DNA from: Rubrivivax sp. | Lineage (GTDB): Bacteria; Pseudomonadota; Gammaproteobacteria; Burkholderiales; Burkholderiaceae_C | Length of the DNA stretch: 32,217 nucleotides | NCBI GenBank assembly: GCA_016788525.1 | Contig: JAEUPD010000061.1 | Coordinates: 1-32,217, forward strand | Direction: 5' to 3' | In this document: in pieces, positions 6,201 through 19,392 of the stretch | Numbering within the stretch: the first letter of the stretch is position 1 | Layout: every line of letters begins with the position of its first letter | Made by a program: the position numbers and the translations under genes | Notes under the pieces: generated by a model | Database searches by the model: none | What the model was told of the DNA's origin: nothing | What the model saw: only the letters and a program-made list of their open reading frames with translations

Positions 6201-8202
6201 CTTCGGGCCCTACAGCCGCAGCTACGGCGACCCGGCCTTCACGCTCACCGCCCCGAGTTCACCGAGTGCCGGTGCATTCACCTTCAGCAGCGGCAACGCC
6301 GCGGTGGCCACGGTGAGCGGCAACACGGTCACCATCGTCGGCGCGGGCAATGCGCTGCTCACCGCGCAGCAGGCAGCCAGCGGCGGCTACAACGCCGCCT
6401 CGACCAGCGTGATGCTCACCGTGAGCCCGGTGGCGCCCACGCTCGGCAGCTTCGGCCCCTACACGAAGAACTACGGAGACGCCGCCTTCGCGCTTTCGCC
6501 GCCGGCCAGCAACAGCGCCGGCGCCTTCACCTACGCCAGCGACAACCTGGCGGTGGCCACGGTGAGCGGCAACACCGTCACCATCGTCGGAGCCGGCAGC
6601 GCCAACCTCACCGCCACCCAGGCCGCGGCCGGCAACCACACCTCCGGCAGCGTGGCCACCGCGCTCACGGTGGCGCCAGTGGCGCCGTCGCTCTCAGGCT
6701 TCGGTGCCATCGGCAAGACGTTTGGCGACAGCGCCTTTGCGCTGGCCGCTCCCACCAGCAACAGCGCCGGCACGTTCAGCTACGCCAGCAGCAACGCGGC
6801 AGTGGCCACGGTCGCCGGCAACGTCGTCAGCATCGTGGGGGCCGGCACGGCCACCCTCACCGCCACGCAGGCGGCGGCCGGCAACTACGGCAGCGGCTCC
6901 ATCGCCGCCACGCTGACAGTGAGCGCCGGCACCCCCACGCTGGGCAGCCTGAGCGTGGCGGGCAAGACCTATGGCGATGCGCCATTCGCGCTCACCGCAC
7001 CCAGCAGCAACAGCGCCGGTGCCTTCAGCTACACCAGCAGCAACACCGGCGTGGCCACCGTGAGCGGCAGCACCGTCACCGTGGTGGGCGTCGGCAGCGC
7101 CACCCTCACCGCCACGCAGGCGGCCAGCGGCAACTACGGCAGCGCCAGCGCCTTGGCCATGCTGGTGGTGAGCGCGGCCACGCCCACGCTGGGCAGCTTC
7201 AGCGTCGCCGGCAGGACGCTGGGCGACGCGCCATTCGCGCTGACCGCGCCCACCAGCAACAGCGCCGGCGCCTTCAGCTACACCAGCAGCAACACGGCGG
7301 TGGCCACGGTGAGCGGCAACACCGTCACGCTGCACGCCGCGGGCAGCACCAACATCACCGCCACGCAGGCCGCCCAAGGCAACTACGGCAGCGCGATGAC
7401 CACGGCCACGCTCACCGTCAGCGCCCAGGCGCCCACGCTGGGCAGCTTCAGCGTGGCCGGCAAGACCTTTGGCGACGCCAACTTCACGCTCACGGCGCCC
7501 ACCAGCAACAGCGCCGGCGCGTTCAGCTTCAGCAGCAGCGACACGGCGGTGGCCACGGTGAGCGGCAACACGGTGACCATCGTCGGGGCCGGCAGCGCCA
7601 CCCTCACCGCCACCCAGGCCGCCGACGGCAACTACGCCGCGGGCTCGACCACCGCCACGCTGACGGTGGCCAAGGCCACGCCCACCATCGCGGCCATCGC
7701 GGATGTCAGCCTGCTGTCGTCGGACTTCTCTGGCCTGTGCATTTCCGACAACACCAGCAGCTGCCCGGGACCGTACTCACGATTCGTGCAGTACACGCTG
7801 ACGCTGGGCGCGGCCACCACCCACCCGGGCGACCTGGGCGCAGCCGCCCCGCCCATCAGCACTGCCACCGTGCTGCGCCTGGGCGACGCGATGACCGTGG
7901 GCACGGCCGGCGTCGTGAATGCAGCGGCTGCGAACCACTACAGCGGGCCCTCATGGTCCATCCAGTCGGGTTTCGCGGTGAGCTACCCGCGCTCCACGCC
8001 GGCCACCACCACGGTGACCGTGACGCGCGCGGCCACGCCGAACTTCAACGCCGCCTCGCGCACCTTCACGCTGACCATCACGCCCACCGATGGCGGCGGC
8101 TACTGCTTCAATGGCGGCAACTACGTGCGGAACGGCGGCCTCCAGGAGTGCGTGTGCACGGCGGACTACACCGGGGAGCGCTGCGACCAGCCCGTCCTGT
8201 AG
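3241..8202 (+). CDS. Giant surface protein: barrel-like N-part, 12 Ig-like repeats, C-terminal EGF signature
   Basis: 1653 residues. Residues 1-41 are an extremely Ala-rich signal peptide ending GGAAA|QGQ. Residues ~65-322 alternate short amphipathic strands (DLRVDIGTTF, LVFSLGSRSQELVLNG, QGALSWRQRLG, GTELLLGLGRESLTQDY, SIDFAHEL, GINLVELRGRGGL) and look like an outer-membrane beta-barrel. Residues ~323-483 are a beta-rich linker. Residues 484-1477 are twelve tandem repeats of 81-83 residues with the core KTFGDxxFxLxAP, NSAGAFSYxSSN, AVATVSGNxVTIVGAG, LTATQAAxGNY, resembling bacterial Ig-like (Big) domains. Residues ~1478-1620 are a further diverged domain, and the protein ends with CVCTADYTGERC, an EGF-type signature. 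Barrel first and Ig stalk after is the order seen in intimin/invasin inverse autotransporters; no LysM motif is visible. Probably a surface adhesin (inference). Repeat 5 lacks the KTFGD motif. The ribosome-binding site is weak. Confidence 0.85.
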   Translation: MPPLALPRPALNLAAVAAVAAAAAAAAAVVALAAAPGGAAAQGQGAGSPAVPAQPAQGATLRTPLLSAGGEDLRVDIGTTFSNRDGVLLSGALAARLGETSASGLVFSLGSRSQELVLNGAWQWHTDQRLLASVGQLRQRQPFDFTSGRVETRVVQDQGALSWRQRLGTGWLRALHVDAYGARTPSRELGAQIYALETPALFELWRDPRRLAGARLGGAEIRLGTAPWPGTELLLGLGRESLTQDYATGATTRRAQVASIDFAHELSDSAAWSAGYARTLANERIALGWSQAVAGGVLGINLVELRGRGGLRSDQQARLSWNLPLGTSGPAGVRAALGAPSNWGRLLDVVAERPQRLPQQVLARADHTAAPVRLVEIDKTALPAGSTIDRASGAISVPLGVSVSGIAGITRNGAAFADGGGAFMASAQQLVIEPAALAEPAVGAADIYRVTLNNTAGGTTVVEVLVARGSVRIQRITVSAGLQPPGLAPLLPLVRTYGDPAFTLSAPSSASNGAITYTSSQPAVATVSGNVVTIVGAGTTTLTAHQAATATHAAGGASATLTVQPALPTLAGFGALTKNLGDGPFVLAVPSSNSAGAITYTSSNVQVATVSGQVATPVGEGTTTLTAHQAAAGHYAAGSISATLTVGQGLPGLGHFAHLTKTFGEAPFALSAPTSNSSGAFSYASSNPAVATVSGGTVTIVGAGLATLTATQVAAGGFGSASISATLTVQPALPALTNFGATSRTFGEPAYALAAPTSTSAGAFSYTSTNPAVATVSGNVVTLTGVGTTMLTATQAAAGNHGSTSISAPLTVFAGVPALGTFAPISLAANAPPHTLTPPASPSAGSFSYASSNPGVASVSGNVVTVVGVGTTTITATQAAHGNYLGASTSTLLAVGSTVPTLGGFPAIGKTFGDAAFTISPPSSNSAGSFSYASSNTAVATVSGNTVTLVGAGTTTLTATQAASGGYSAASIAATLTVNGATPALGAFGPYSRSYGDPAFTLTAPSSPSAGAFTFSSGNAAVATVSGNTVTIVGAGNALLTAQQAASGGYNAASTSVMLTVSPVAPTLGSFGPYTKNYGDAAFALSPPASNSAGAFTYASDNLAVATVSGNTVTIVGAGSANLTATQAAAGNHTSGSVATALTVAPVAPSLSGFGAIGKTFGDSAFALAAPTSNSAGTFSYASSNAAVATVAGNVVSIVGAGTATLTATQAAAGNYGSGSIAATLTVSAGTPTLGSLSVAGKTYGDAPFALTAPSSNSAGAFSYTSSNTGVATVSGSTVTVVGVGSATLTATQAASGNYGSASALAMLVVSAATPTLGSFSVAGRTLGDAPFALTAPTSNSAGAFSYTSSNTAVATVSGNTVTLHAAGSTNITATQAAQGNYGSAMTTATLTVSAQAPTLGSFSVAGKTFGDANFTLTAPTSNSAGAFSFSSSDTAVATVSGNTVTIVGAGSATLTATQAADGNYAAGSTTATLTVAKATPTIAAIADVSLLSSDFSGLCISDNTSSCPGPYSRFVQYTLTLGAATTHPGDLGAAAPPISTATVLRLGDAMTVGTAGVVNAAAANHYSGPSWSIQSGFAVSYPRSTPATTTVTVTRAATPNFNAASRTFTLTITPTDGGGYCFNGGNYVRNGGLQECVCTADYTGERCDQPVL
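4690..7671 (+). repeat. Twelve tandem ~249-bp coding repeats
   Basis: DNA-level tandem array inside the surface-protein gene. The first unit is 243 bp (residues 484-564); the next eleven each span 249 bp. Blocks such as GTGGCCACGGTCAGCGGCAA and CTCACCGCCACGCAGGC recur almost unchanged in each unit. Late units (9-12) are more alike than early ones, and unit 5 is the most diverged. Such arrays commonly change copy number by unequal recombination or slippage, and assemblies from short reads may miscount them. Confidence 0.9.
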
Positions 8203-8277: not shown

Positions 8278-9237
8278 CTACACCGCCGCCGCGCGCCGGT
8301 AGTCACTCGGTGCCACGCCCAGGTGGGCGCGGAACACGCGGCTGAAGTGCGCCATGTTCTGGAAGCCCGCGGCCAGCGCGATGTCGGTGATCGAGCGGTG
8401 GGCGCTCGCCTGGTCGACGAAGGCCTGGCGGCAGGCCTCGAGCCGGCGCGCGAGGATGTAGCCGGCCACGCCGTCGGCCTCTTCGGCAAAGGCGTTGTAC
8501 AGCTGCCGCCGGCTGACGTTGAGTGCGCTGGCGATGGCGTCCACCGTCAGCCCGGGCTCGGCCAGATGCTGCGCCACATGCTGCTTGATGCGCTCGCGCA
8601 GCGCCTCGCGCTGGGTCTGCGCGGTGGCCTGGCCGGCCAGGTCGAGCAGCGACAGGTGCACCAGCTGCGTGATGGCGTCGCCCACGCCGCGCGCCGCGGC
8701 CTCGGGCATGCTGGGCAGCTCGCGAAAGGCGTTGCGCATGGTGTCCAGCGCCAGGCGCGAGATGCCGCCGCTGCCGCCCAGGCGCCGCGCCATCAGCGCT
8801 TCGAGCATGGGCGCGCTCACCCCCCTCTCGGCGAAGGCGCGCTTGGGCAGCATCACGATCAGGTGCTCCACGCGCCCGGGGTTGGCCACCGCGTAGCTGT
8901 CGGTGGTGTCGTAGATGCTCCACTGGCCCGGCGTCACCCAGGTCTCGCGGCCCTTCTGCTCCACGCCCGCGCAGCCGACCCATGGCGCCACGATCTTGAG
9001 GTAGGGCGCCTCGGTGGCGCGTGCGATGGCGTTGGAGCGCATCACGCGGTGGCGCGTGGCCTCCAGGTGCGTGAGCACCACCTCGCCGGCGTGCCAGGTG
9101 CTGGCGCGGCCGGAGAAATCGGCGTCGCCGTACTCGTCGGCCTTCAGGCCCTGGAAGAGCTGGGAGATCCAGCCTCGCCAGAAGGCCACGCGCTCGCCGG
9201 CGGCGACCTCGCGGGTGTCCATCAGCTGCGGCTTCAT
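8278..9237 (-). CDS. AraC-family transcriptional regulator (FeaR/NphR-like)
   Basis: 319 residues. The N-terminal ~170 residues fit the AraC-binding-like ligand domain (as in FeaR and NphR): opening VAAGERVAFWRGWISQLF, then GQWSIYDTTDSYAV and HLIVMLPKRAF. The C-terminal ~100 residues are the double helix-turn-helix: LTVDAIASALNVSRRQLYNA for the first reader helix, and SITDIALAAGFQNMAHFSRV then FRAHLGVAPSDYRR for the second. It is transcribed away from the ABC importer operon across a 196-bp spacer that holds a tandem 21-bp direct repeat, the usual arrangement for an AraC activator acting on the neighbouring operon. FeaR controls an aromatic-aldehyde dehydrogenase in E. coli, and this operon also ends in such a gene, which supports an aromatic effector (inference). 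Confidence 0.92.
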   Translation of the reverse strand: MKPQLMDTREVAAGERVAFWRGWISQLFQGLKADEYGDADFSGRASTWHAGEVVLTHLEATRHRVMRSNAIARATEAPYLKIVAPWVGCAGVEQKGRETWVTPGQWSIYDTTDSYAVANPGRVEHLIVMLPKRAFAERGVSAPMLEALMARRLGGSGGISRLALDTMRNAFRELPSMPEAAARGVGDAITQLVHLSLLDLAGQATAQTQREALRERIKQHVAQHLAEPGLTVDAIASALNVSRRQLYNAFAEEADGVAGYILARRLEACRQAFVDQASAHRSITDIALAAGFQNMAHFSRVFRAHLGVAPSDYRRAAAV

Positions 9238-9433: not shown

Positions 9434-10657
9434 ATGCCCACCTTGCCGACCACCCTGCCCTCCCATCTGAGCCGCCGCCGCCTCGTGCAGGCGCTTGCCG
9501 CGGGCGCTGCCACCGCGGGGCTGCCGGGCCTCGTGCACGCGCAGGGCGGCCCGGTGCGCGTGGGCTACGCGATGGCGCGCACAGGCCCGTGGAGCGTGGG
9601 CGCGCAGGTCAGCCAGGAGCCCAACTTCCTGCTGTGGGCCGAGCAGCAGAACGCCGCCGGCGGCCTGAACGTGAAGGGCGTGAAGCGCCCGATCGAACTC
9701 ATCAGCAGCGACGACCGCAGCGACATGGAAACGGTGGTGCGCACCTACGAGAAGCTGATGGGCAGCGACAAGGTCGACCTCATCCTGCCGCCCTGGGGCA
9801 GCAACGCCAACTTCGCCGTGGCGCCGCTGGCCAACAAGTACGGCTACCCGTTCCTCGCACCCACGGCGCTCTCGCGCCGGCTGGTGGAGATGAAGCTGCC
9901 GTACTTCTTCCTGCTGCTGCAGCAGCCCAAGCCGATGATGGAGGCGCTGGTCGACATGCTGAAGGCCAACGGCGCGAAGTCGGCCGCCGTGGTGTACGTG
10001 GACGACCTGTTCGGCATCGAGAACTTCGCGGCGCTGAAGGTGGCGCTGGGCGGCAGCGGCATCAGTGTGGTCGACGAGAAGAGCTACCCGCTGGGCGTGA
10101 AGGACCTGAGCCCGGTGCTGCGCGGCATCAAGGACAAGAACCCCGATGCCTTCATCGGCCTGACCTACCCGCCCGACACCATCCTCGCCAGCCGGCAGAG
10201 CAAGGAGATCGGCTTCAACCCGAAGTTCTTCTACGCCAGCGTGGGCACGGCGTTCCAGCTGTACCGCAACGTCATGAAGGAGGGCGCCGAGGGCGTGCTG
10301 GGCATGGGCAGCTGGAACGCCAAGACGAGCGCCAGCGCCAAGGCGTACTTCGAGGCCCACGTGAAGAAGTTCGGCGCCACCAAGGAGCCCGACCGCTGGG
10401 CCAGCGGCCACTGCTGGGCGGGGCTCCAGATCCTCACCGCGGCCGTGGCCAAGGTGGGGCTGGACCGCAAGGCGATGCGCGACTACGTGGCCAACACCAC
10501 GCACGACACGATCATCGGCAAGGTGCGCTTCCAGGGCAGCGAGAACGTGGGCATTCCGGGCACGGTGGCGCAGTGGCAGAAGGGCGAGTTCGAGGTGGTG
10601 TGGCCGAAGACTTCGGCCACGGCGCCGTTGAATGCCAACAAGCCGGCTTGGGTGTAG
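9434..10657 (+). CDS. ABC importer substrate-binding protein (LivK-like, aromatic/branched-chain class)
   Basis: 407 residues, periplasmic binding protein of the LivK/Peripla_BP_6 type. A twin-arginine-like leader (SRRRLVQALAAG, residues 13-24) and a hydrophobic stretch end at VHAQ near residue 36. Mature-protein marks are VRVGYAMARTGPWSVGAQ, LWAEQQNAAGGLNVKG, PIELISSDDRSD, the first hinge ILPPWGSNANFAVAPLANKY, and FLAPTALSRR. A strong ribosome-binding site (AGGAG) lies 5 bases before the ATG. It is the first gene of the operon and is separated from the permease genes by 758 bases containing two large repeats. The ligand is not shown by sequence; the downstream aldehyde dehydrogenase suggests an aromatic compound. 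Confidence 0.93.
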   Translation: MPTLPTTLPSHLSRRRLVQALAAGAATAGLPGLVHAQGGPVRVGYAMARTGPWSVGAQVSQEPNFLLWAEQQNAAGGLNVKGVKRPIELISSDDRSDMETVVRTYEKLMGSDKVDLILPPWGSNANFAVAPLANKYGYPFLAPTALSRRLVEMKLPYFFLLLQQPKPMMEALVDMLKANGAKSAAVVYVDDLFGIENFAALKVALGGSGISVVDEKSYPLGVKDLSPVLRGIKDKNPDAFIGLTYPPDTILASRQSKEIGFNPKFFYASVGTAFQLYRNVMKEGAEGVLGMGSWNAKTSASAKAYFEAHVKKFGATKEPDRWASGHCWAGLQILTAAVAKVGLDRKAMRDYVANTTHDTIIGKVRFQGSENVGIPGTVAQWQKGEFEVVWPKTSATAPLNANKPAWV

Positions 10658-11082: not shown

Positions 11083-11344
11083 GTGGTTGCAAAGCCGGCG
11101 TTGCGCTGACCGGTGCGGGCCATCAGCAGTTCGCGCCGGAGTCAGGCGGGTTGTCGGGCGGCGCGCGTACTCGCGCGCTTCCAAGACTGACTCGCGAAAA
11201 CTGTCTGAGCGGAGCGCGCGTTTGCGCGCGCGCAGCGAGTTTTTTCGCGCGCCCGACAACCCGCATGACGCAGGGCACCCGGGCCTTTGGCCCGGGCGCG
11301 GACTGCGCCCGCACCGGCCAGCGCAACGCCGGCTTTGCCGCCAC
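11083..11344 (-). repeat. Large palindromic intergenic repeat, copy 4 (orientation B)
   Basis: Inverted partner of copy 3, 100 bases downstream in the same spacer. The outer arms run GTGGTTGCAAAGCCGGCG to CGCCGGCTTTGCCGCCAC, with a second pair GCGCTGACCGGTGCGGGC/GCCCGCACCGGCCAGCGC. The core GACTCGCGAAAACTGTCTGA is conserved. Copies 3 and 4 together could pair over most of their length to form a long hairpin between the receptor gene and the first permease gene. Confidence 0.87.
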
Positions 11345-11415
11345 AACGATCGAACGCCAACCCCACAACTCAACGCGGGCCTCAACGCCAGCCGCCGCAA
11401 CGCAGGCCTGCAGCC

Positions 11416-12300
11416 ATGACCGCCACCGCCTGGTTCGAGCTCATCGTCTCCGGCCTCATCACCGGCGCCGTCTACTCGCTCGTGGGCCTGGGCCTGAACC
11501 TGCAGTACGGCCTGATGCGCATCCTGAACATCGCCCATGGCGAGTTCCTGATGCTGGGCGCCTTCCTCACCTGGATGGCCACCACCGCCTGGGGCTGGTC
11601 GCCGCTGGCGATGATCCCTCTCAGCTTCGTGCTGCTCATGGCCATCGGCGTGGGCATCCACCGCCTCACCTTCAGGCGCCTGGCCGAGACCAGCCCCGAC
11701 CTCGACATCTTCGAGGCCCGCGGTCTGATGGTGGCCTTCGGCCTGATGTTCCTGGTGCAGAACTTCGCGCAGCTCACGTGGGGCGGCGACCTGCGCGGCT
11801 ACGACTACCTCACCGACCCGGTGCCCTTGCCCGGCGGCACGCAGTTCGCCGGCAACAAGCTCGTGCTGCTGGCGCTGTCGCTGGCCTTCAGCCTCGCGCT
11901 CATCGTCGTGCTGCGCCTCACGCTGTGGGGCAAGGGCGTGCGCGCGCTCATGCAAAGCCCCGCCGGCGCGCAGCTGGTGGGCATCGACACCGAGCGGCTG
12001 CACCCGCTGATGTTCGGTGCGGGCCTGGGCCTCTCGGGCGTGGCGGGCTGCCTGCTCTCCACGGCCTACACCATCACGCCGTCGATGGGCGAGCCCTACA
12101 CGGTGACGGCGCTCATCGTCATCACCCTGGGCGGCTTCGGCCACATGGGCGGCGCGCTCGCGGGCGGGCTGGCGCTGGGCGTCATCGAGGCGGTGGGCAT
12201 GCACTTCACCAACCCCTCGCTGAAGTCGGTGCTGAGCTACGCGGTGTTCATCCTCGTGCTGCTCTGGAAACCGAACGGCCTGTTCAACAAACGGAAATGA
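11416..12300 (+). CDS. Branched-chain-type ABC permease, LivH-like
   Basis: 294 residues, inner-membrane permease with eight or so hydrophobic segments. The N-terminus GLITGAVYSLVGLGLNLQYG followed by RILNIAHGEFLMLGAF is the LivH hallmark. The cytoplasmic loop RALMQSPAGAQLVGIDTERL couples to the ATPases, and TALIVITLGGFGHMGGALAG is the typical late segment. ATG 11416 is chosen because family homology starts just after it; the longer in-frame extension runs into repeat copy 4. It ends 106 bases before livM, and the gap holds the second repeat family. Confidence 0.93.
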   Translation: MTATAWFELIVSGLITGAVYSLVGLGLNLQYGLMRILNIAHGEFLMLGAFLTWMATTAWGWSPLAMIPLSFVLLMAIGVGIHRLTFRRLAETSPDLDIFEARGLMVAFGLMFLVQNFAQLTWGGDLRGYDYLTDPVPLPGGTQFAGNKLVLLALSLAFSLALIVVLRLTLWGKGVRALMQSPAGAQLVGIDTERLHPLMFGAGLGLSGVAGCLLSTAYTITPSMGEPYTVTALIVITLGGFGHMGGALAGGLALGVIEAVGMHFTNPSLKSVLSYAVFILVLLWKPNGLFNKRK

Positions 12301-12320: not shown

Positions 12321-12402
12321 GCGACCGCCGCGGATCCGGGTCTGCCGGGCCGCCGGCGGTGCCCCCCTGGAGGGGAGGCGGCCGCAGGCCGCTTCGGGGG
12401 GG
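12321..12402 (-). repeat. Second intergenic repeat family, copy 1
   Basis: About 80 bases lying just before the LivM-like start. On the minus strand it begins CCCCCCCGAAGCGGCC, continues GCCGCCTCCCCTCCAGGGGG, and ends in a GC-rich segment GGCGGCCCGGCAGACCCGGA. It aligns over its whole length with the copy at 14268-14344 at roughly 80% identity by eye, in the opposite orientation. It holds two small inverted repeats (CCCCC/GGGGG and GCGGCC/GGCCGC) and is unlike the large palindromic family. It places a G-rich stretch about 5 bases before the ATG. Confidence 0.8.
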
Positions 12403-12406
12403 AGCC

Positions 12407-13486
12407 ATGACTCGCCATGTCACCAGCAGCGACCCCTGGCATGTGCGGCTGCGCGAGCGGCTGTTCGGCTGGGTGCTGGACGCACGCGGCATGGGCCGCG
12501 ACATGTGGGTGCTGTTCGCGCTCACCGGCTGGGCGCTGGCCATCCCGCACTACGGCAGCGAGTTCGCGGTGTCGATGGCGCTGACCTGCCTGATGTACGT
12601 CGCGCTGGCCACCAGCTGGACCCTCTTCTGCGGCACCACTCGCTACCTCTCGCTGGCGACCTCGGCCTTCTTCGGCATCGGCGCCTACACCGGCGCGCTC
12701 ACGATCGAGCAGTTCGATTGGTTGGCCGTCATCGCACTCGGCGCCGCGGTGGCCGCGGTGGTGGCGGTGGTGATGGGCAGCGCGGTGCTGCACCTGCGCG
12801 GCACCTACTTCGCCGTGCTCACCTTCGGCATGACCGAGCTCATCCGCCACGCCGTCACCTACTGGGAGAAGAAGGTCACCGGCACCGTGGGCCGCGTGCT
12901 CACCACGGTGCCCGATCGCGACACCGTGTACCTCACGGTCGCCGGCCTCGCGGTGCTGGCGGTGGCGGTGAGCCTGCTGGCGCGCCGCACGCGCTTCGGC
13001 CTGGCGCTGCAGGGCATCGGCGCCGACGAGCAGCGCGCGATGACGCTCGGCGTGAACACCCGCGTCGTCAAGGTGCTGGGCTTCGCGCTCACCGCGGCGT
13101 TTGCCGGCGCCGTGGGCGCGGCGATGAGCGTGCGCTGGACCTACATCGACCCGGCCACCGTTTTCAACCCCTTCATCGGCTTCCAGACGGTGTTGATCGC
13201 GCTCATCGGCGGCATCGCCACGCTGTGGGGGCCGCTCATCGCCGCCATCGTCTTCAGCCTGCTGGCCGAGACGCTGCGGCTGCAGGCGCCGCAGCTGTAC
13301 CTGATGGCCTTGGGCTTTCTGCTGATCCTGTGCGTGCTGTACCTGCCGGGCGGCCTGGCCTCGATGCGCTGGGCGAGTTTCCGCCAGTGGCGCGACGACA
13401 TCCGCGGTTGGTGGCGCGAGCGCGAAGACAAGGCCAAGCGCGCGGCGCGCCGCGAGCGCGACGCACGCTACGGGGTGGGTTCATGA
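12407..13486 (+). CDS. Branched-chain-type ABC permease, LivM-like
   Basis: 359 residues, second inner-membrane permease. Family marks: YVALATSWTLFCGTTRYLSL, ATSAFFGIGAYTGALT, HLRGTYFAVLTFGMTELIRH, the coupling loop RFGLALQGIGADEQRAMTLG, and IGFQTVLIALIGGIATLWGP. The C-terminus is a charged cytoplasmic tail (WWREREDKAKRAARRERDAR) longer than usual. ATG 12407 is preferred over an upstream start in the repeat because homology starts here and the G-rich segment precedes it. The stop codon overlaps the ATG of a 14-codon frame (ATGA at 13483-13486) that leads into the LivG-like gene. Confidence 0.93.
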   Translation: MTRHVTSSDPWHVRLRERLFGWVLDARGMGRDMWVLFALTGWALAIPHYGSEFAVSMALTCLMYVALATSWTLFCGTTRYLSLATSAFFGIGAYTGALTIEQFDWLAVIALGAAVAAVVAVVMGSAVLHLRGTYFAVLTFGMTELIRHAVTYWEKKVTGTVGRVLTTVPDRDTVYLTVAGLAVLAVAVSLLARRTRFGLALQGIGADEQRAMTLGVNTRVVKVLGFALTAAFAGAVGAAMSVRWTYIDPATVFNPFIGFQTVLIALIGGIATLWGPLIAAIVFSLLAETLRLQAPQLYLMALGFLLILCVLYLPGGLASMRWASFRQWRDDIRGWWREREDKAKRAARRERDARYGVGS

Positions 13487-13527
13487 TCGGCCCAACCACC
13501 AGCGGCAAGCGAAGGGCGGCGCCATGA
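13483..13527 (+). CDS. 14-codon minicistron linking livM-like and livG-like genes
   Basis: Reads MIGPTTSGKRRAAP. Its ATG overlaps the LivM-like stop (ATGA, 13483-13486) and its TGA overlaps the LivG-like start (ATGA, 13524-13527). The exact double overlap would let a ribosome pass from livM through the mini-frame to livG by termination-reinitiation. A purine-rich GCGAAGGGCGG inside it could be the livG ribosome-binding site. It may be a coincidence of a 40-base spacer; no peptide function is implied. Confidence 0.35.
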   Translation: MIGPTTSGKRRAAP

Positions 13528-14267
13528 ACGGCCACCCGGTGCTGGAAGCCCGCCACGTCACCGTGCGCTTCGACGGCCTGGTGGCCGTGGACGACGTGAG
13601 CGCCGCCTTCGCCGCCGGCGAGCTGGTGGGCATCATCGGCCCCAACGGCGCGGGCAAGACCACGTTCTTCAACGCCCTCTCGGGCGTGCAGCAGCCCACC
13701 GGCGGCGAGCTGTACGCGATGGGCCGGCGGCTCACCGGCAGCAAGCCGCACAAGTACGCCGCGCTCGGCATCGCGCGCACCTTCCAGACGCCGCGCATCT
13801 TCGGCAGCCTCAGCGTCGCGGCCAACATCGACTTCGGCCTGCAGTTCGCCGGCCGCCACCGCGCCGGCGTGTGGCTGCTGAAAGACGAAGACAGCATCCT
13901 GCACGTGATCGGCCTCTCGGAGCAGCGCGACCTGCCGGCCGCGGCCATCACGCCCAGCCAGCAGCGCCTGCTGGAGATCGGCATGGCGCTGGCCACGCGG
14001 CCCAAGCTCTTGCTGCTGGACGAAGTAGCCGCCGGCCTCACCGAAGCCGAGATCGATTCGATGGCGCAACTCATCAAGCGCTTTCGCGACGAGCTGGATC
14101 TCACCGTGATCTGGATCGAACACGCGGTGACCACGCTGCTGAAGTACGTGGAGCGCGTGATCGTGCTGCACCAGGGCCGCAAGATTGCCGACGGCACACC
14201 GGCCGAGGTGGTGCGCAATGCCGAGGTGATCGAGGCGTACCTTGGCGACGAGATGGTGGAAACATGA
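13524..14267 (+). CDS. Branched-chain-type ABC ATPase, LivG-like, with atypical signature motif
   Basis: 247 residues. Walker A GPNGAGKTT at residues 39-47; RTFQTPRIFGSLSVAANI is the Q-loop region; Walker B LLLLDE ends at D166-E167; the H-loop is VIWIEHAV. The usual ABC signature (LSxGQ) is replaced by ITPSQQ (residues 142-147), and the residue after Walker B is Val where Pro is common (DEVAAGLT). The partner ATPase downstream keeps a canonical MSGGEQQ. In a heterodimeric ABC importer one weakened site can be tolerated because the two ATPases share two composite sites. The C-terminus AYLGDEMVET fits the LivG end. The stop at 14267 is followed at once by a second-family repeat. Confidence 0.9.
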   Translation: MNGHPVLEARHVTVRFDGLVAVDDVSAAFAAGELVGIIGPNGAGKTTFFNALSGVQQPTGGELYAMGRRLTGSKPHKYAALGIARTFQTPRIFGSLSVAANIDFGLQFAGRHRAGVWLLKDEDSILHVIGLSEQRDLPAAAITPSQQRLLEIGMALATRPKLLLLDEVAAGLTEAEIDSMAQLIKRFRDELDLTVIWIEHAVTTLLKYVERVIVLHQGRKIADGTPAEVVRNAEVIEAYLGDEMVET

Positions 14268-14344
14268 CCCCCCCGAAGCGACTTCGTCGCCTCCCCCCAG
14301 GGGGCGCCGCCAGCGGCCCGGCAGAGCCGGTTCCGCGGCGGCCG
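14268..14344 (+). repeat. Second intergenic repeat family, copy 2
   Basis: Begins at the end of the LivG-like gene: CCCCCCCGAAGCGACTTCGT, then CGCCTCCCCCCAGGGGGCGC and CAGCGGCCCGGCAGAGCCGG. Aligns with 12321-12402 in reverse orientation. It holds the small hairpins GAAGCGACTTC and CCCCCAGGGGG and fills most of the 106-base gap before the LivF-like ATG. Confidence 0.8.
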
Positions 14345-14373: not shown

Positions 14374-16626
14374 ATGAACAACGACCTCGAAGCCGCCCTC
14401 GGCCAGCGCCTGGCGCACCTGAAGGTCATCGGCCTGGCAGCAGGTTATGGCCCTTTCCTCGTGCTGCGCGACATCCGCATCGAAGCGCGGCCGGGGCTCA
14501 CCGTCGTCCTCGGCCCCAACGGTGCCGGCAAGACCACGCTGCTCAAAGCCATCGCGGGCCTGATCCCGCGCGCCGCCGGCACGCTGTGGTTCGACGGCGC
14601 CATCCTCGACCCCGAGGCCAAGACGAGCGAGATCGTCGAGCGCGGCCTGACGCTCGTGCCCGAGGGCCGGCAGCTCTTTGCGCAGATGACGGTGCGCGAG
14701 AACCTCGAGTTGGGCGGCTGGCTCGCGACGAAGGAAGAACGCAGCCAGCGCCTGGACGAAGTGCTCGCCCTCTTCCCGCGGCTGGCCGAGCGCATCGGCC
14801 AGCGCGCCGGCACCATGAGTGGCGGCGAACAGCAGATGGTTGCCGTGGGCCGCGCGATGATGAGCAAGCCGCGTCTCTTGATGCTCGACGAGCCCTCGCT
14901 CGGCCTCGCGCCCAAGATGGTGGACGAGCTGCTCGGCATGGCCCGGCGCATCGCCGACCAGGGCACCACCGTGCTGATGGTGGAGCAGAACGTGAAGAAG
15001 GCGCTGGCCGTGGCCGACCGCGGCTACGTGCTGGAGCGCGGGCGCATCGTCGCCAGCGGCCCCGCCAGCCTGCTGGCGCGCAGCACGGTCATCCGAGAGG
15101 CCTATCTCGGCAAGACCGACGAACGAACCTCAGCCAGCCGCGCCGCTGGCATCGCCACGAAGGAGAGCCCCGTGTCCGACCTCAGCATGCTCATCAACGG
15201 CCTCTCGGTCAGCGCCGAGAAGGGCGCCACCTTCGACCGCCGCAACCCGCTGGACGGCAGCGTGGCCACGCGCGCGCCCGCGGCCAGCGCCGCCGACGCG
15301 GTCGCCGCCTGCGACGCCGCTGCCGAGGCTTTCAAGACCTGGAAGGACACCGGCCCCAGCGAGCGCCGCATGCTGCTGCTGAAAGCCGCCGACGCGCTGG
15401 AGGCGAAGACACCCAAGTTCATCGAGGCCGTGCCCGCCGAGACCGGCGCAACCGGCATGTGGGCCGGCTTCAACGTGATGCTGGCCGCCGGCATGATCCG
15501 CGAGGCCGCCTCGCTCACCACGCAGATCGGCGGCGAGGTGATTCCCTCCGACGTGCCCGGCTCACTCGCGATGGGCGTGCGGCAGGCAGCCGGCGTGGTG
15601 CTCGGCATCGCGCCGTGGAACGCGCCCGTCATCCTGGGCGTGCGCGCGATTGCCACGCCGCTGGCCTGCGGCAACACGGTGATTCTCAAGGGCAGCGAGA
15701 ACTGCCCGCGCACGCACCAGCTCATCATCGAGGCGTTCCAGGACGCGGGCTTCCCGCCGGGCGTCGTCAACTACATCACCAACGCCCCGGCCGATGCGGG
15801 TGCGGTGGTGGAGGCGATGGTGTCGCACCCCGCCGTGCGCCGCGTGAACTTCACCGGCAGCACGCGCGTGGGCAAGCTCATCGCGCTGACCTGTGCCAAG
15901 TACCTGAAGCCGGTGGTGCTGGAACTCGGCGGCAAGGCGCCGCTGGTGGTGCTGGACGACGCCGAGATCGAAGCCGCGGTGAACGGCGCCGCCTTCGGCG
16001 CCTTTGCCAACAGCGGCCAGATCTGCATGAGCACCGAGCGCATCATCTGCGACAAGAAGATCGCCGACGACTTCGTGGCCCAGTTCGTGAAGAAGGCGAA
16101 GGCCCTGCCGCTGGGTGACCCGCGCAAGCCCGACCCCGTGGTGCTGGGCAGCGTCATCGGCATGGGCACGGTGGAGCACTGCAACGCGCTGATCGACGAC
16201 GCGCTGGCCAAGGGCGCCAAGCTCGTGTGCGGCGGCAAGGCCGACAACACGCTGATGCCCGCCACCGTGCTGGACCACGTGACGCCCAAGATGCGCATCT
16301 ACCACGAGGAGACCTTCGGCCCCGTGAAGTGCGTGGTTCGCGTGGACGGCGTGGACGAGGCGGTGGCCTGCGCGAACGACAACGAATACGGGTTGTCAGC
16401 CGCCGTGTTCGGCAAGGACACGGCGCGGGCGATTGCGGTGGCGCGGCGCATCGAGAGCGGCATCTGCCACGTGAACGGGCCCACCGTGCACGACGAGGCG
16501 CAGATGCCGTTTGGTGGCGTGAAGGGTTCCGGGATGGGGCGCTTCGGCGGGCGGGCGGGGATTGCGGAGTTCACCGAGCTGCGGTGGATCACGGTGCAGA
16601 CGGGGGAGAGGCACTACCCGTTCTGA
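14374..16626 (+). CDS. LivF-like ABC ATPase in one stop-free frame with aldehyde dehydrogenase
   Basis: From ATG 14374 the frame stays open for 750 codons. Residues 1-~250 are a complete LivF-type ATPase: LKVIGLAAGYGPFLVLRDI, Walker A GPNGAGKTT, VPEGRQLFAQMTVRENLELG, signature MSGGEQQMVAVGRAMM, Walker B LLMLDEPSLGLAP, H-loop VLMVEQNVKKAL, and the family's usual end VIREAYLGK. A stop would be expected there. Instead a ~20-residue linker (TDERTSASRAAGIATKESP) runs into the aldehyde dehydrogenase. An internal GTG with a strong ribosome-binding site opens the dehydrogenase at 15172, so the locus may make a fusion protein, a free dehydrogenase, or both. Loss of a single stop codon is the simplest origin. 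The ATPase would act at the inner membrane with the LivH/LivM-like permeases. Confidence 0.8.
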   Translation: MNNDLEAALGQRLAHLKVIGLAAGYGPFLVLRDIRIEARPGLTVVLGPNGAGKTTLLKAIAGLIPRAAGTLWFDGAILDPEAKTSEIVERGLTLVPEGRQLFAQMTVRENLELGGWLATKEERSQRLDEVLALFPRLAERIGQRAGTMSGGEQQMVAVGRAMMSKPRLLMLDEPSLGLAPKMVDELLGMARRIADQGTTVLMVEQNVKKALAVADRGYVLERGRIVASGPASLLARSTVIREAYLGKTDERTSASRAAGIATKESPVSDLSMLINGLSVSAEKGATFDRRNPLDGSVATRAPAASAADAVAACDAAAEAFKTWKDTGPSERRMLLLKAADALEAKTPKFIEAVPAETGATGMWAGFNVMLAAGMIREAASLTTQIGGEVIPSDVPGSLAMGVRQAAGVVLGIAPWNAPVILGVRAIATPLACGNTVILKGSENCPRTHQLIIEAFQDAGFPPGVVNYITNAPADAGAVVEAMVSHPAVRRVNFTGSTRVGKLIALTCAKYLKPVVLELGGKAPLVVLDDAEIEAAVNGAAFGAFANSGQICMSTERIICDKKIADDFVAQFVKKAKALPLGDPRKPDPVVLGSVIGMGTVEHCNALIDDALAKGAKLVCGGKADNTLMPATVLDHVTPKMRIYHEETFGPVKCVVRVDGVDEAVACANDNEYGLSAAVFGKDTARAIAVARRIESGICHVNGPTVHDEAQMPFGGVKGSGMGRFGGRAGIAEFTELRWITVQTGERHYPF
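15160..15174 (+). promoter_or_regulatory. Internal ribosome-binding site and GTG start of the aldehyde dehydrogenase
   Basis: AAGGAG at 15160-15165, six bases before GTG 15172, lies within the open frame joining the LivF-like ATPase and the dehydrogenase. It is among the strongest Shine-Dalgarno sequences in this operon, which argues that a free dehydrogenase is still translated. Confidence 0.7.
15172..16626 (+). CDS. NAD(P)-dependent aldehyde dehydrogenase (salicylaldehyde/vanillin dehydrogenase-like)
   Basis: 484 residues if started at GTG 15172. AAGGAG lies 6 bases upstream, ideal for initiation, although the frame is also open from the LivF-like gene. Oxidises an aldehyde to the acid with NAD(P). 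Visible: cofactor segment GIAPWNAPVILGVRAIATPL, KGSENCPRTH, FTGSTRVGKLIA, general base in LELGGKAP (E251), catalytic nucleophile in SGQICMSTER (C285), EETFGPVKCVVRV, and the C-terminal MPFGGVKGSGMGRFGG. The QICMSTER wording and the closing SGMGRFGGRAGIAEFTELRW resemble aromatic-aldehyde dehydrogenases such as salicylaldehyde (NahF/DoxF-like) and vanillin dehydrogenases. Operon context with an AraC/FeaR-like regulator and a LivKHMGF-type importer supports uptake and oxidation of an aromatic compound. The exact substrate is not decidable here. Confidence 0.92.
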   Translation: MSDLSMLINGLSVSAEKGATFDRRNPLDGSVATRAPAASAADAVAACDAAAEAFKTWKDTGPSERRMLLLKAADALEAKTPKFIEAVPAETGATGMWAGFNVMLAAGMIREAASLTTQIGGEVIPSDVPGSLAMGVRQAAGVVLGIAPWNAPVILGVRAIATPLACGNTVILKGSENCPRTHQLIIEAFQDAGFPPGVVNYITNAPADAGAVVEAMVSHPAVRRVNFTGSTRVGKLIALTCAKYLKPVVLELGGKAPLVVLDDAEIEAAVNGAAFGAFANSGQICMSTERIICDKKIADDFVAQFVKKAKALPLGDPRKPDPVVLGSVIGMGTVEHCNALIDDALAKGAKLVCGGKADNTLMPATVLDHVTPKMRIYHEETFGPVKCVVRVDGVDEAVACANDNEYGLSAAVFGKDTARAIAVARRIESGICHVNGPTVHDEAQMPFGGVKGSGMGRFGGRAGIAEFTELRWITVQTGERHYPF

Positions 16627-16834: not shown

Positions 16835-17752
16835 TCACTTCGTGGAGCCGATGAACTCGCCGAGCTTGTCGAGGTCGTGGGACCAGAAAAGGGATAGGCC
16901 GCGCAACTGCGCCTGTTCGAGGTTCAGCACCTTGAAGACTCCGGCCAGCGCGGCGGCAGGCACGACCTGCGCGGTGCCGAACTGCTTGATCCAGTATTCG
17001 GCTTTGACTGCTGCGTCGTTGTTCAGGCGCTTGACGCTGTTGGTCGCGCTGTTCGACACCTTGCACTCGATCGCCATGAGACGCGTGTCGTGCAATCGCA
17101 CGACAACGTCGGCCTTGCGCTCGCCGAGCAGACATTCAGCGCAGAACTGCATGGCCTGCGGCCCTTTGACGATCGTGTTGATCGCCACGGCCGGGGCCTC
17201 GGTGAAGCCCATGTTGCGAAGGTAGTCCTTCACTGTTGTCTCTTGATTCTCCTTGCCCTCGTTGCGTCGCTCGGTCGCGATGCGCTGTGCGGCCAGGAGT
17301 ACAGAAGACGCCAGCAAGGCAGCTTCGCGCTGGCGAGCGGTCGGAGCGCCGCCGGCTTCCATCCATGGAAAGCGGTGGGGGTCGATCACGCGCTCAATGA
17401 CCGCGAACACCTTGCGCAGCGACTCGGGCTCGTTCCTCAAGATGCCGGGAGCGATCGAATCGACATCGGCGACGACTTGCAGATCGTCATCCGAGATCGG
17501 CGGGCCGGCCAAATAGCGCAACGCTTCGCCGAGGCCCAGGCCATATGCTTCGGCAAGGTTGTCGTCGGTGATCGCGCCAGGGTTGAGGTCGCTCAGCTTC
17601 TTGAAGAGCAGCTCGAACTTGCCTCGCGCCTGTTTGTAGTGTGTTGCCCAGGAGCCAGTGACGGCCAAGCGCTCAGTCCTGAACTGAGCGGCAGAGGTCG
17701 CGGCGTCTTCGGCGAGTTCGGCAGTGGTCCATCGAGGCGGTGCGCTTGTCAT
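16835..17752 (-). CDS. XamI-family type II restriction endonuclease
   Basis: 305 residues matching the XamI family, whose founding member recognises GTCGAC. The N-terminal two thirds are helical (FRTERLAVTGSWATHYKQAR, LNPGAITDDNLAEAYGLGLG, DPHRFPWMEAGGAPTARQRE). The probable PD-(D/E)xK core is RKADVVVRLHDTRLMAIECK with D215, E229 and K231. The ATG at 17752 overlaps the stop of the methylase gene (ATGA), a classical coupling that lets the methylase be made first. Base composition is nearer 60% GC than the ~70% around it, consistent with transfer. The recognition sequence is inferred from the family only. Confidence 0.87.
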   Translation of the reverse strand: MTSAPPRWTTAELAEDAATSAAQFRTERLAVTGSWATHYKQARGKFELLFKKLSDLNPGAITDDNLAEAYGLGLGEALRYLAGPPISDDDLQVVADVDSIAPGILRNEPESLRKVFAVIERVIDPHRFPWMEAGGAPTARQREAALLASSVLLAAQRIATERRNEGKENQETTVKDYLRNMGFTEAPAVAINTIVKGPQAMQFCAECLLGERKADVVVRLHDTRLMAIECKVSNSATNSVKRLNNDAAVKAEYWIKQFGTAQVVPAAALAGVFKVLNLEQAQLRGLSLFWSHDLDKLGEFIGSTK

Positions 17753-19392
17753 GCGGACAATGTTTCCAGGCTTGGGATTCGCAGGCGCTCGATCTCCTTG
17801 GGCTCGAACTTGGTCAAGCCTCCGGCATAGGTTCTGCCGCTCCCCGTGTTGATGTTCTTGTTGAGCCACGTCACTAGCCGCGCCATGACACCGTCGGCCA
17901 GCGGCTGGCTCGGGTAGAGGCCGTGCGCGACGTTGATGTGTCGCGCGCCACATGCGTTGACCGTGAACTGAGGCGGCCGGCGGGCCATGTATGTGCAAAG
18001 GATGGGCGCCGGAGCCTTGAGGCCTACGGACCACCAGGCTTTGCGGTGCCGCGCGATGTAACTCCGATCTGCGCCGTTGAGCTTCGCCCAGGACAGAAAG
18101 TCGCTGACGCGTCGGCGCTCTTCCTTGGTGAAGTCGTCCAGCTCGGCCGGCAGGTCGATGACACGGCGCAGGTCCTCGGCCGAGTTCAGATGCGCGCCGG
18201 CGTGGATCAGGTCTTTGGCCTTGGTGACGGCCGGCAGCTTGACACGATCGGGCAGGCCCTGAGCATGCTCACCGGCAATCCAGACGACGTTTGCACCCGT
18301 GACCTGACCACGATGCACACGGAACAGCTCACCAAGCTCGATGTCACCGGCTATGGCTGGCTCGGACGGTCGAACGATGATCGACCAGCGCGGCGCGGAA
18401 TGCAGCTTCTCGCGCGGGATGTCGGTTCCGTTGGTTAAGCCGTTGAGGCGTTCCAGCTCATCGATGGCGTGCACCCGCACCGGTTCTGCCGTCTTGCCGA
18501 CGCGGAAGCAGGTGATCGCGGCCGTCGTCGCCGTTCCCGGGAAGGCTTCGACGGTCGGCTCGAGCACGTGCAGGGCCACTCCTCCCAACTCGTCGAGCAA
18601 GAGCCGACGAAGCGCAGAACCGTAGTTCACATCCAGCCACTCGGCTGAGGTGATGAATGCGCCTACATCTCCCGCCTTCGCGAGCAAGCGCGTTTGCAGG
18701 AAGAAGTGCAGATGCAGGCCAGCCAGCGCGCTCGCCTTGATGCCGAAGTCGGCGAAGGTCGAGGCGTACCAGGCTTTCCAGTCCTCGGCGATGTCGTGGT
18801 GTCGCACGTATGGCGGATTGCCGATGAAGACGGTCATGCCGGCGCAGCGCGGCAGCTTGACCTCGCGATAGTCCTTGACCAGTACGGTCGCCCGATCGGT
18901 CCACCCGCGAGCGGCGAGGTTCGCACGCAGCATCAGCGCAGCCAGCGGATCCATCTCCACAGCCACGAGTTGCGCATCTGGGAAAGCCTCGCCTGCCGCT
19001 AGGACGAAGCGACCCGAACCCGCTCCCGGATCGACGACGCGGGCCGGCGTTCCTTGGCTGGCCAGCCAAGTCATCATCGAGCGGACAATCGGCGCAGGCG
19101 TATAGACGGCGCCGGTGGCGCGCCGCTCGGCTGCCGATCGGACTGACGAGAAGGCTTCCCCAAGCGGGTCAGCTCCACGGGCGATTGCTTTGCGGATCGT
19201 CTCGATGTCCCGAGGCACGAGCCCCGATGCAAACGCAGCCTCTGCCAGCTTGCGCTCGGCCGCAGACAGGCTGCCTTGTTCGCCGATTAGGGCCAGGCAC
19301 AGGGCTGCCAGTTCTTGCTCCGTCTGCACGACCACTTCCGTTCTCTCCAAGACAGCAAACAGGTCAGCTTGGCCCGGTAGCTGCTTCTTCAT
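17749..19392 (-). CDS. N6-adenine DNA methyltransferase of the XamI-like restriction-modification system
   Basis: 547 residues, gamma-type adenine methyltransferase that would protect host DNA at the endonuclease's site. Residues 93-110 (TGAVYTPAPIVRSMMTWL) are the usual lead-in; the S-adenosylmethionine motif DPGAGSGRF is at 121-129, VAVEMDPLA at 144-152, and catalytic NPPY at 192-195 followed by VRHHDIAEDWKAWY. The C-terminal half (from about 300) is the target-recognition part, with a TaqI-like arrangement. ATG 19392 is followed by KKQLPGQADLFAV; its ribosome-binding site is weak. It is the first gene of a two-gene operon with the endonuclease. No controller (C) protein gene is visible. 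Confidence 0.9.
   Translation of the reverse strand: MKKQLPGQADLFAVLERTEVVVQTEQELAALCLALIGEQGSLSAAERKLAEAAFASGLVPRDIETIRKAIARGADPLGEAFSSVRSAAERRATGAVYTPAPIVRSMMTWLASQGTPARVVDPGAGSGRFVLAAGEAFPDAQLVAVEMDPLAALMLRANLAARGWTDRATVLVKDYREVKLPRCAGMTVFIGNPPYVRHHDIAEDWKAWYASTFADFGIKASALAGLHLHFFLQTRLLAKAGDVGAFITSAEWLDVNYGSALRRLLLDELGGVALHVLEPTVEAFPGTATTAAITCFRVGKTAEPVRVHAIDELERLNGLTNGTDIPREKLHSAPRWSIIVRPSEPAIAGDIELGELFRVHRGQVTGANVVWIAGEHAQGLPDRVKLPAVTKAKDLIHAGAHLNSAEDLRRVIDLPAELDDFTKEERRRVSDFLSWAKLNGADRSYIARHRKAWWSVGLKAPAPILCTYMARRPPQFTVNACGARHINVAHGLYPSQPLADGVMARLVTWLNKNINTGSGRTYAGGLTKFEPKEIERLRIPSLETLSA

What the first reader, a model, noticed from the sequence alone, without database searches (positions are those of the whole stretch)
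14374..16626. LivF-type ABC ATPase and aldehyde dehydrogenase share one stop-free frame
The frame is open from the LivF-like ATG 14374 to the dehydrogenase stop at 16626, 750 codons, with a ~20-residue linker exactly where a LivF stop is expected. A strong AAGGAG plus GTG at 15172 would also start a free dehydrogenase. The locus may therefore make an importer ATPase with a tethered enzyme that oxidises what is imported (metabolic channelling), while also making the free enzyme. I know of no described LivF-dehydrogenase fusion. The simplest alternative is loss of a single stop codon.
Basis: partly seen in the sequence, partly recalled or inferred. Interest (0 to 1): 0.72.

Follow-up and report, generated by a model that had tools for sequence, protein, structure and literature searches.

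The report
Importer ATPase fused to aldehyde dehydrogenase
In this bacterium the ATPase of a nutrient importer and an enzyme related to aromatic-aldehyde oxidisers are encoded as one protein, with a second start signal that should also make the enzyme alone; relatives share the arrangement, and the join seems to have arisen more than once.

Summary
Window 14374-16626 is one frame of 750 codons plus stop: a complete LivF-type ATPase (residues 1-246), a 20-residue linker and a complete aldehyde dehydrogenase (ALDH) closest to vanillin and salicylaldehyde dehydrogenases. AAGGAG (15160) plus GTG (15172) lies at the junction. It is not an artefact or a lone lost stop. I catalogued 47 fused and 95 split loci. 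On trees built without the junction the fused state needs four changes: a clade of 35 from the window's family, a clade of nine around two named alphaproteobacteria, and two singletons. No split row lies inside either clade. Linker length changed at least 23 times there, never out of frame. Linker substitutions show codon constraint. All 47 fused loci keep a Shine-Dalgarno motif plus ATG/GTG in a weakly structured stretch. Fusion protein plus free ALDH is the likely output. Tethering is plausible but untested; the substrate is unknown. No LivF-ALDH fusion appeared in the paper listings I saw. New variant of a known kind: fusion of operon neighbours with internal initiation.

The parts
8278..9237 (-). 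AraC-type regulator, divergent from the operon
   Evidence: Pfam AraC_binding_2 + HTH_18; a match in 35 of 57 relatives with enough flank, of which 34 upstream of the operon and one (L092, 26% identity) downstream
9434..10657 (+). Substrate-binding protein (Peripla_BP_6)
   Evidence: Pfam; homologue upstream of LivH in 57 of 57 loci examined
11287..12300 (+). LivH-type permease (start codon uncertain)
   Evidence: BPD_transp_2; 57 of 57
12359..13486 (+). LivM-type permease
   Evidence: BPD_transp_2; LivM is the best NCBIfam hit, below its cut-off; 57 of 57
13524..14267 (+). LivG-type ATPase with its own stop
   Evidence: ABC_tran + BCA_ABC_TP_C; 57 of 57
14374..15111 (+). LivF-type ATPase domain, residues 1-246; Walker A, signature and Walker B regions intact (motif names recalled)
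   Evidence: Pfam ABC_tran, LivF is the best NCBIfam hit, 1ji0 alignment, motif residues invariant in 39 fused proteins
15112..15171 (+). Linker, residues 247-266
   Evidence: pLDDT below 50 at 247-266; codon-level constraint across 9 pairs of fused loci
15160..15165 (+). Internal Shine-Dalgarno AAGGAG, 6 nt before GTG
   Evidence: read directly; GGAG (46) or AGGA (1) kept in 47 of 47 fused loci
15172..16626 (+). Aldehyde dehydrogenase domain; the GTG is also the likely start of free ALDH (484 aa)
   Evidence: Pfam Aldedh; vanillin DH 9ihb E 4e-189, salicylaldehyde DH 6qhn and NahF 4jz6; E517 and C551 invariant in 39 fused proteins

Best explanation
The last two genes of a LivKHMGF-type import operon, livF and a vanillin/salicylaldehyde-dehydrogenase-like gene, are stably fused. 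Translation from the LivF start makes a LivF-linker-ALDH protein of 750 residues, and this operon has no other LivF. Translation from the retained internal ribosome-binding site makes free ALDH from the same mRNA. Most likely the LivF part pairs with LivG under the LivH/LivM permeases and holds an ALDH on a flexible tether at the cytoplasmic side of the importer, while free ALDH subunits complete the ALDH oligomers. Shown by sequence: the fusion, its conservation, four changes of state on the tree, codon constraint on the linker, retention of the internal start. Inferred: that both products accumulate (about 0.85), and that the benefit is co-locating oxidation of an aromatic aldehyde with uptake (about 0.5).
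For: Open frame in 47 catalogued loci. Fused state needs 4 changes on a 137-row tree and on a 59-row mixture-model tree, where 200 bootstrap trees gave a 5-95% range of 4-4; the clades of 35 and 9 hold no split row. At least 17 + 6 linker-length changes inside those clades, 0 out of frame, against at least 23 frame-class changes with at least 47 length changes in 56 split relatives. Linker pN/pS 0.31 in frame against 1.32 and 2.21 in the shifted frames; differences at codon positions 19/12/40 (9 pairs). Pooled pN/pS 0.13 for LivF and 0.08 for ALDH. Internal start: 47 of 47 keep SD + ATG (36) or GTG (11); spacing 6 or 9 nt in 46 of 46 with GGAG, against 5-12 nt in 86 split loci, 46 of 86 multiples of three; of other in-frame ATG/GTG codons in 38 fused loci 22 of 2458 have GGAG at 4-10 nt. 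Folding energy there averages -8.6 in 47 fused loci and -8.1 at 88 split starts, background -22.8 and -21.4. Linker disordered in the model. Binding protein, LivH, LivM and LivG upstream in 57 of 57 loci examined.
Against: No protein-level data. The window's own junction is weaker than average: GTG start, folding energy -14.5 (above 93.5% of 600 other positions). The linker sequence is little conserved. The fusion is uncommon: in an even phylum sample of 398 genomes, 30 of 45 matches were fetched as loci; 12 of the 30 had an adjacent LivF, and the 2 fused ones were the window itself and a known member of its clade. Split relatives live without it. Counts of changes do not by themselves tell gain from loss. 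One search warns of long branches, L204, L124 and L226 among them, and the place of L226 is unsupported.
Confidence: 0.72

Rival explanations
1. Expression-level fusion: the join has no channelling role. It fixes the ratio of LivF to ALDH or is simply tolerated, and the tether is neutral.
For: ALDH follows LivF in the split relatives too; free ALDH is probably still made by the internal start; linkers are variable and disordered.
Against: If the tether were neutral some lineage should have regained a stop or lost frame; in the tree none of the 35 and none of the 9 did, despite at least 23 length changes. Four changes of state on the tree.
Confidence: 0.35
2. Recent loss of a single stop codon, or an assembly error, at this locus.
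For: In one GC-rich locus a 20-codon stop-free stretch is unremarkable.
Against: The same open frame in 36 loci of the window's group from separate genomes, named isolates among them; they form one clade (35 of the 36 were in the tree).
Confidence: 0.01
3. Only the fusion is made; the SD + ATG/GTG is a leftover of the ancestral ALDH start.
For: 11 of 47 fused loci have GTG there, against 0 of 94 split loci (93 ATG, 1 TTG), which suggests relaxed strength.
Against: With at least 6 start-codon changes over the 44 fused rows scored, only ATG and GTG occur; GGAG stays while the residue before Glu varies (Lys, Gln, Glu, Ala, Arg); low structure kept.
Confidence: 0.1
4. The fusion protein is made and then cleaved in the linker, giving separate LivF and ALDH.
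For: Linker disordered and variable; nothing here excludes it.
Against: A kept internal start would then be largely redundant. I saw no shared motif in the linkers printed apart from the stretch at the SD and start, by eye only.
Confidence: 0.1

Closest known systems
LivF / branched-chain amino acid importer ATPases (NF008626; structure 1ji0)
   Same: Complete LivF-like domain in a LivKHMGF-type operon
   Different: NF008626 matched well below its curated cut-off (227.8 vs 441 bits); no stop after LivF; C-terminal enzyme
Vanillin and salicylaldehyde dehydrogenases (9ihb, 6qhn, NahF 4jz6)
   Same: Aligned over 463-479 query residues, including the ELGGK Glu and GQICMS Cys
   Different: Those chains are 467-500 residues long, without an ATPase domain; here an importer ATPase is joined at the N terminus
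NrtC of the cyanobacterial nitrate importer
   Same: Importer ATPase subunit with an extra C-terminal domain (PMC6603209, passages seen)
   Different: There the extra domain is regulatory, not an enzyme
UrtABCDE and urease in Synechocystis
   Same: A urea importer whose UrtE is of the same ATPase group (second-best NCBIfam hit of our LivF); urease proteins came down in the same PII pull-down, and the authors suggest possible metabolic channelling (PMC6603209, passages)
   Different: Association by pull-down, no covalent fusion
Cas11b from inside cas8b
   Same: One gene, two products by internal in-frame initiation (PMC11899642, abstract)
   Different: Unrelated proteins; archaeal CRISPR

Membership tests
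LivF (importer ATPase) | ABC ATPase domain with intact Walker A, signature, Walker B (motifs recalled) | tested here: met
   Pfam; G47, N49-K53, S149-G151, D172-E173 invariant in 39 fused proteins
LivF (importer ATPase) | Operon with binding protein, LivH, LivM, LivG | tested here: met
LivF (importer ATPase) | NCBIfam LivF equivalog cut-off (441 bits) | tested here: not met
   227.8 bits, yet the best-scoring family; LivF-like, not that equivalog
Vanillin/salicylaldehyde dehydrogenase-like ALDH | Full-length ALDH alignment with catalytic Cys and Glu (roles recalled) | tested here: met
   C551 and E517
Vanillin/salicylaldehyde dehydrogenase-like ALDH | Activity on aromatic aldehydes | not testable with these tools
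   needs an assay
Internal-initiation dual-product gene | Conserved SD + start in frame inside the ORF | tested here: met
   47 of 47 fused loci
Internal-initiation dual-product gene | Both products detected | not testable with these tools
   needs Ribo-seq or proteomics

The most novel reading that the evidence does not exclude
Bacteria have up to four times turned an ABC importer into an enzyme-bearing scaffold by fusing LivF to an aromatic-type aldehyde dehydrogenase, and tune the share of tethered and free enzyme with an internal start, so that mixed ALDH oligomers sit at the importer's exit and consume a reactive aldehyde as it forms.
Probability: 0.42. Interest if true: 0.78.

Novelty: new variant of a known kind. 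Interest (0 to 1): 0.6.

Why it matters
Direct coupling of uptake to the first catabolic steps is often proposed and seldom shown (general knowledge). Here the link is covalent, kept across a clade and reached more than once, and sister groups with split genes are natural controls. That makes transport-metabolism channelling testable in named isolates. It also shows a fused gene that keeps the downstream gene's ribosome-binding site, so annotating one 750-residue protein would miss the second product.

Tried and rejected
Single stop loss or assembly error: rejected by relatives. A LivF-ALDH fusion common across the phylum: not supported, 2 of 30 fetched loci in an even sample (15 of the 45 matches were not fetched). 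Plasmid copies: of 250 records with a match, 6 cover at least 80% of the query in one place (H1-H3, H10-H12); five carry separate ALDH and ABC annotations and H2 has no annotation (30 of 250 listed). A TPP enzyme as constant partner: found by L091, L104 and some split alphaproteobacterial loci, not in the window (many loci have only about 1.5 kb of flank). Substrate from neighbours: an amidase in L048 and an anthranilate synthase gene in L096 lie downstream, so no inference. Papers: for a fusion and 45 for internal starts; I saw listings only (20 of 75, 20 of 57, 10 of 1,486) and no described LivF-ALDH fusion in them. The structure model has low confidence at 385-403, 546-552 (which holds C551), 583-593 and 696-750, probably from the shallow alignment; I use it only for the linker and the presence of two domains. 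No fold search was run.

Dropped or double rows: 30 of 179 loci were removed as duplicates; L198, L214 and L217 were left out as copies when merging. L022 and L031 are one locus counted twice among the 95 split loci, which also include three distant ones (L027, L029, L032). One search used 137 of the 142 loci with adjacent LivF: rows under 58% ALDH identity or with a short ALDH were dropped, among them L158 (fused, contig edge). One search used a hand-picked 59. Part of the split set came from a tblastn ranking capped at 80 that favours same-frame neighbours; 25 split loci from genome surveys alone gave junction length mod 3 of 15, 4 and 6 for 0, 1 and 2. Clade-2 junction lengths were measured by two conventions 6 nt apart; all are multiples of three and seven lengths are distinct either way. 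In one search the SD was cut off from the linker in seven pairs, while in the two alphaproteobacterial pairs the cut fell after it.

Full report
Observation. The frame 14374-16626 is open for 750 codons. It encodes a complete LivF-type ATPase, a 20-residue linker and a complete aldehyde dehydrogenase. The LivF part aligns to 1ji0 up to its near-terminal AYLG, so nothing of LivF appears to be missing. The internal AAGGAG-N6-GTG lies at 15160-15174. The window is a whole contig of a 73%-complete draft genome.

Relatives. In the genus (81 genomes, own included) 32 have a match at E <= 1e-150; 15 matches span both parts with no stop and 4 span both with one TGA. A named-genome scan kept the best 80 of 587 loci. 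Together with a family survey of 399 genomes (110 with a match, not all classed) and 35 fetched regions, 149 distinct loci were classed: 38 fused, 59 split in the same frame, 31 split in another frame, 21 without an adjacent LivF or at a contig edge. Named fused organisms include Piscinibacter sp. MQ-18, P. defluvii, P. sakaiensis 201-F6, Caldimonas caldifontis, C. manganoxidans, Aquabacterium humicola, Roseateles toxinivorans and Caldovatus aquaticus. Split ones include Hydrogenophaga, Polaromonas, Ramlibacter, Limnohabitans, Tepidimonas, Bradyrhizobium and Shinella. Surveys around the genomes of L104 and L091 (195 and 199 genomes) added nine fused loci, total 47 fused and 95 split.

History. 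Trees from LivF + ALDH without the junction (137 rows, quick; 59 rows, careful mixture model) both need four changes, all forced by starred branches; 200 bootstrap trees gave 4-4. The fused clades are nested among split rows, which favours gains, but change counts cannot tell gain from loss, and several rows, L226 included, sit on long branches.

Selection on the join. Between fixed LivF and ALDH residues the junction is 48 to 75 nt in clade 1, needing at least 17 length changes, and takes seven lengths in the nine rows of clade 2, at least 6 changes; all are multiples of three. In 56 split relatives at least 23 frame-class changes accompany at least 47 length changes. A lost frame inside a fused clade would have shown as a split row there; none did. 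In nine pairs of fused loci the linker has 71 differences falling 19/12/40 on codon positions, pN/pS 0.31, against 1.32 and 2.21 in shifted frames. LivF and ALDH are under strong purifying selection (0.13 and 0.08, 15 pairs, not all independent). A LivF under such selection with no stop before the end of ALDH implies that the fusion protein is made.

Internal start. All 47 fused loci keep an SD (46 GGAG, 1 AGGA) and ATG (36) or GTG (11). Spacing is 6 or 9 nt in 46 of 46, always whole codons, while split loci spread over 5-12 nt (46 of 86 multiples of three). Elsewhere in 38 fused frames 22 of 2458 in-frame ATG/GTG codons have GGAG at 4-10 nt. The 60-nt folding energy there averages -8.6 in 47 fused loci and -8.1 in 88 split loci, against backgrounds of -22.8 and -21.4; 46 of 47 fused junctions are at or above the 90th percentile. 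The window is less extreme: -14.5, above 93.5% of 600 positions. GTG occurs only in fused loci (11 of 47; 0 of 94 split), which may mean that free enzyme is down-tuned where the fusion supplies part of it (inference).

Function. Binding protein, LivH, LivM and LivG precede LivF and ALDH in 57 of 57 loci with at least 5.5 kb upstream (11 fused, 46 split), often with a divergent AraC-type gene. The ALDH is nearest to vanillin and salicylaldehyde dehydrogenases, so an aromatic aldehyde or its precursor is the likely substrate. Upstream of L091 and L104 lies a thiamine-diphosphate enzyme of family PRK08327 (L104 above the cut-off; L091, cut by the edge of the fetched stretch, just below), with weaker similarity to benzoylformate decarboxylase, and one Burkholderia plasmid match overlaps genes annotated as aldehyde dehydrogenase and mdlC (H9). 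The model shows two folded domains and a disordered linker at 247-266. I propose that LivF carries ALDH to the importer and that free ALDH completes the oligomers; co-location is inferred, not shown.

Known background. An importer ATPase with an extra, regulatory C-terminal domain is known (NrtC), and a urea importer was pulled down together with urease proteins (PMC6603209, passages). Internal in-frame initiation is known (PMC11899642, abstract). I saw no LivF-ALDH fusion in the listings; the library lacks most subscription papers.

Verdict.

Noticed in passing
16835-19392 (-): XamI-type restriction endonuclease (16835-18034) with an Eco57I-like N6-methylase gene (17749-19392), convergent with and just downstream of the fused gene.
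   Followed up: no
14275-14306: GC-rich repeat between LivG and LivF; five copies at up to 3 mismatches in the genome, one (C118:7709) about 280 nt before a stretch similar to LivF.
   Followed up: partly
L225 (G872): Relative in which LivF lacks a stop and reads out of frame 929 nt into the ALDH gene; natural overlap or assembly error.
   Followed up: no
3241-8202 (+): Predicted 1653-residue protein with a Big_2 Ig-like domain match and a weaker hyaluronate-lyase beta-domain match.
   Followed up: no
L019, L020, L053, L063 and other split loci: In many split loci of the window's family LivF carries a C-terminal extension of about 20 residues with a recurring TTAADAVQRRRK-like pattern before its stop; function unknown.
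   Followed up: no
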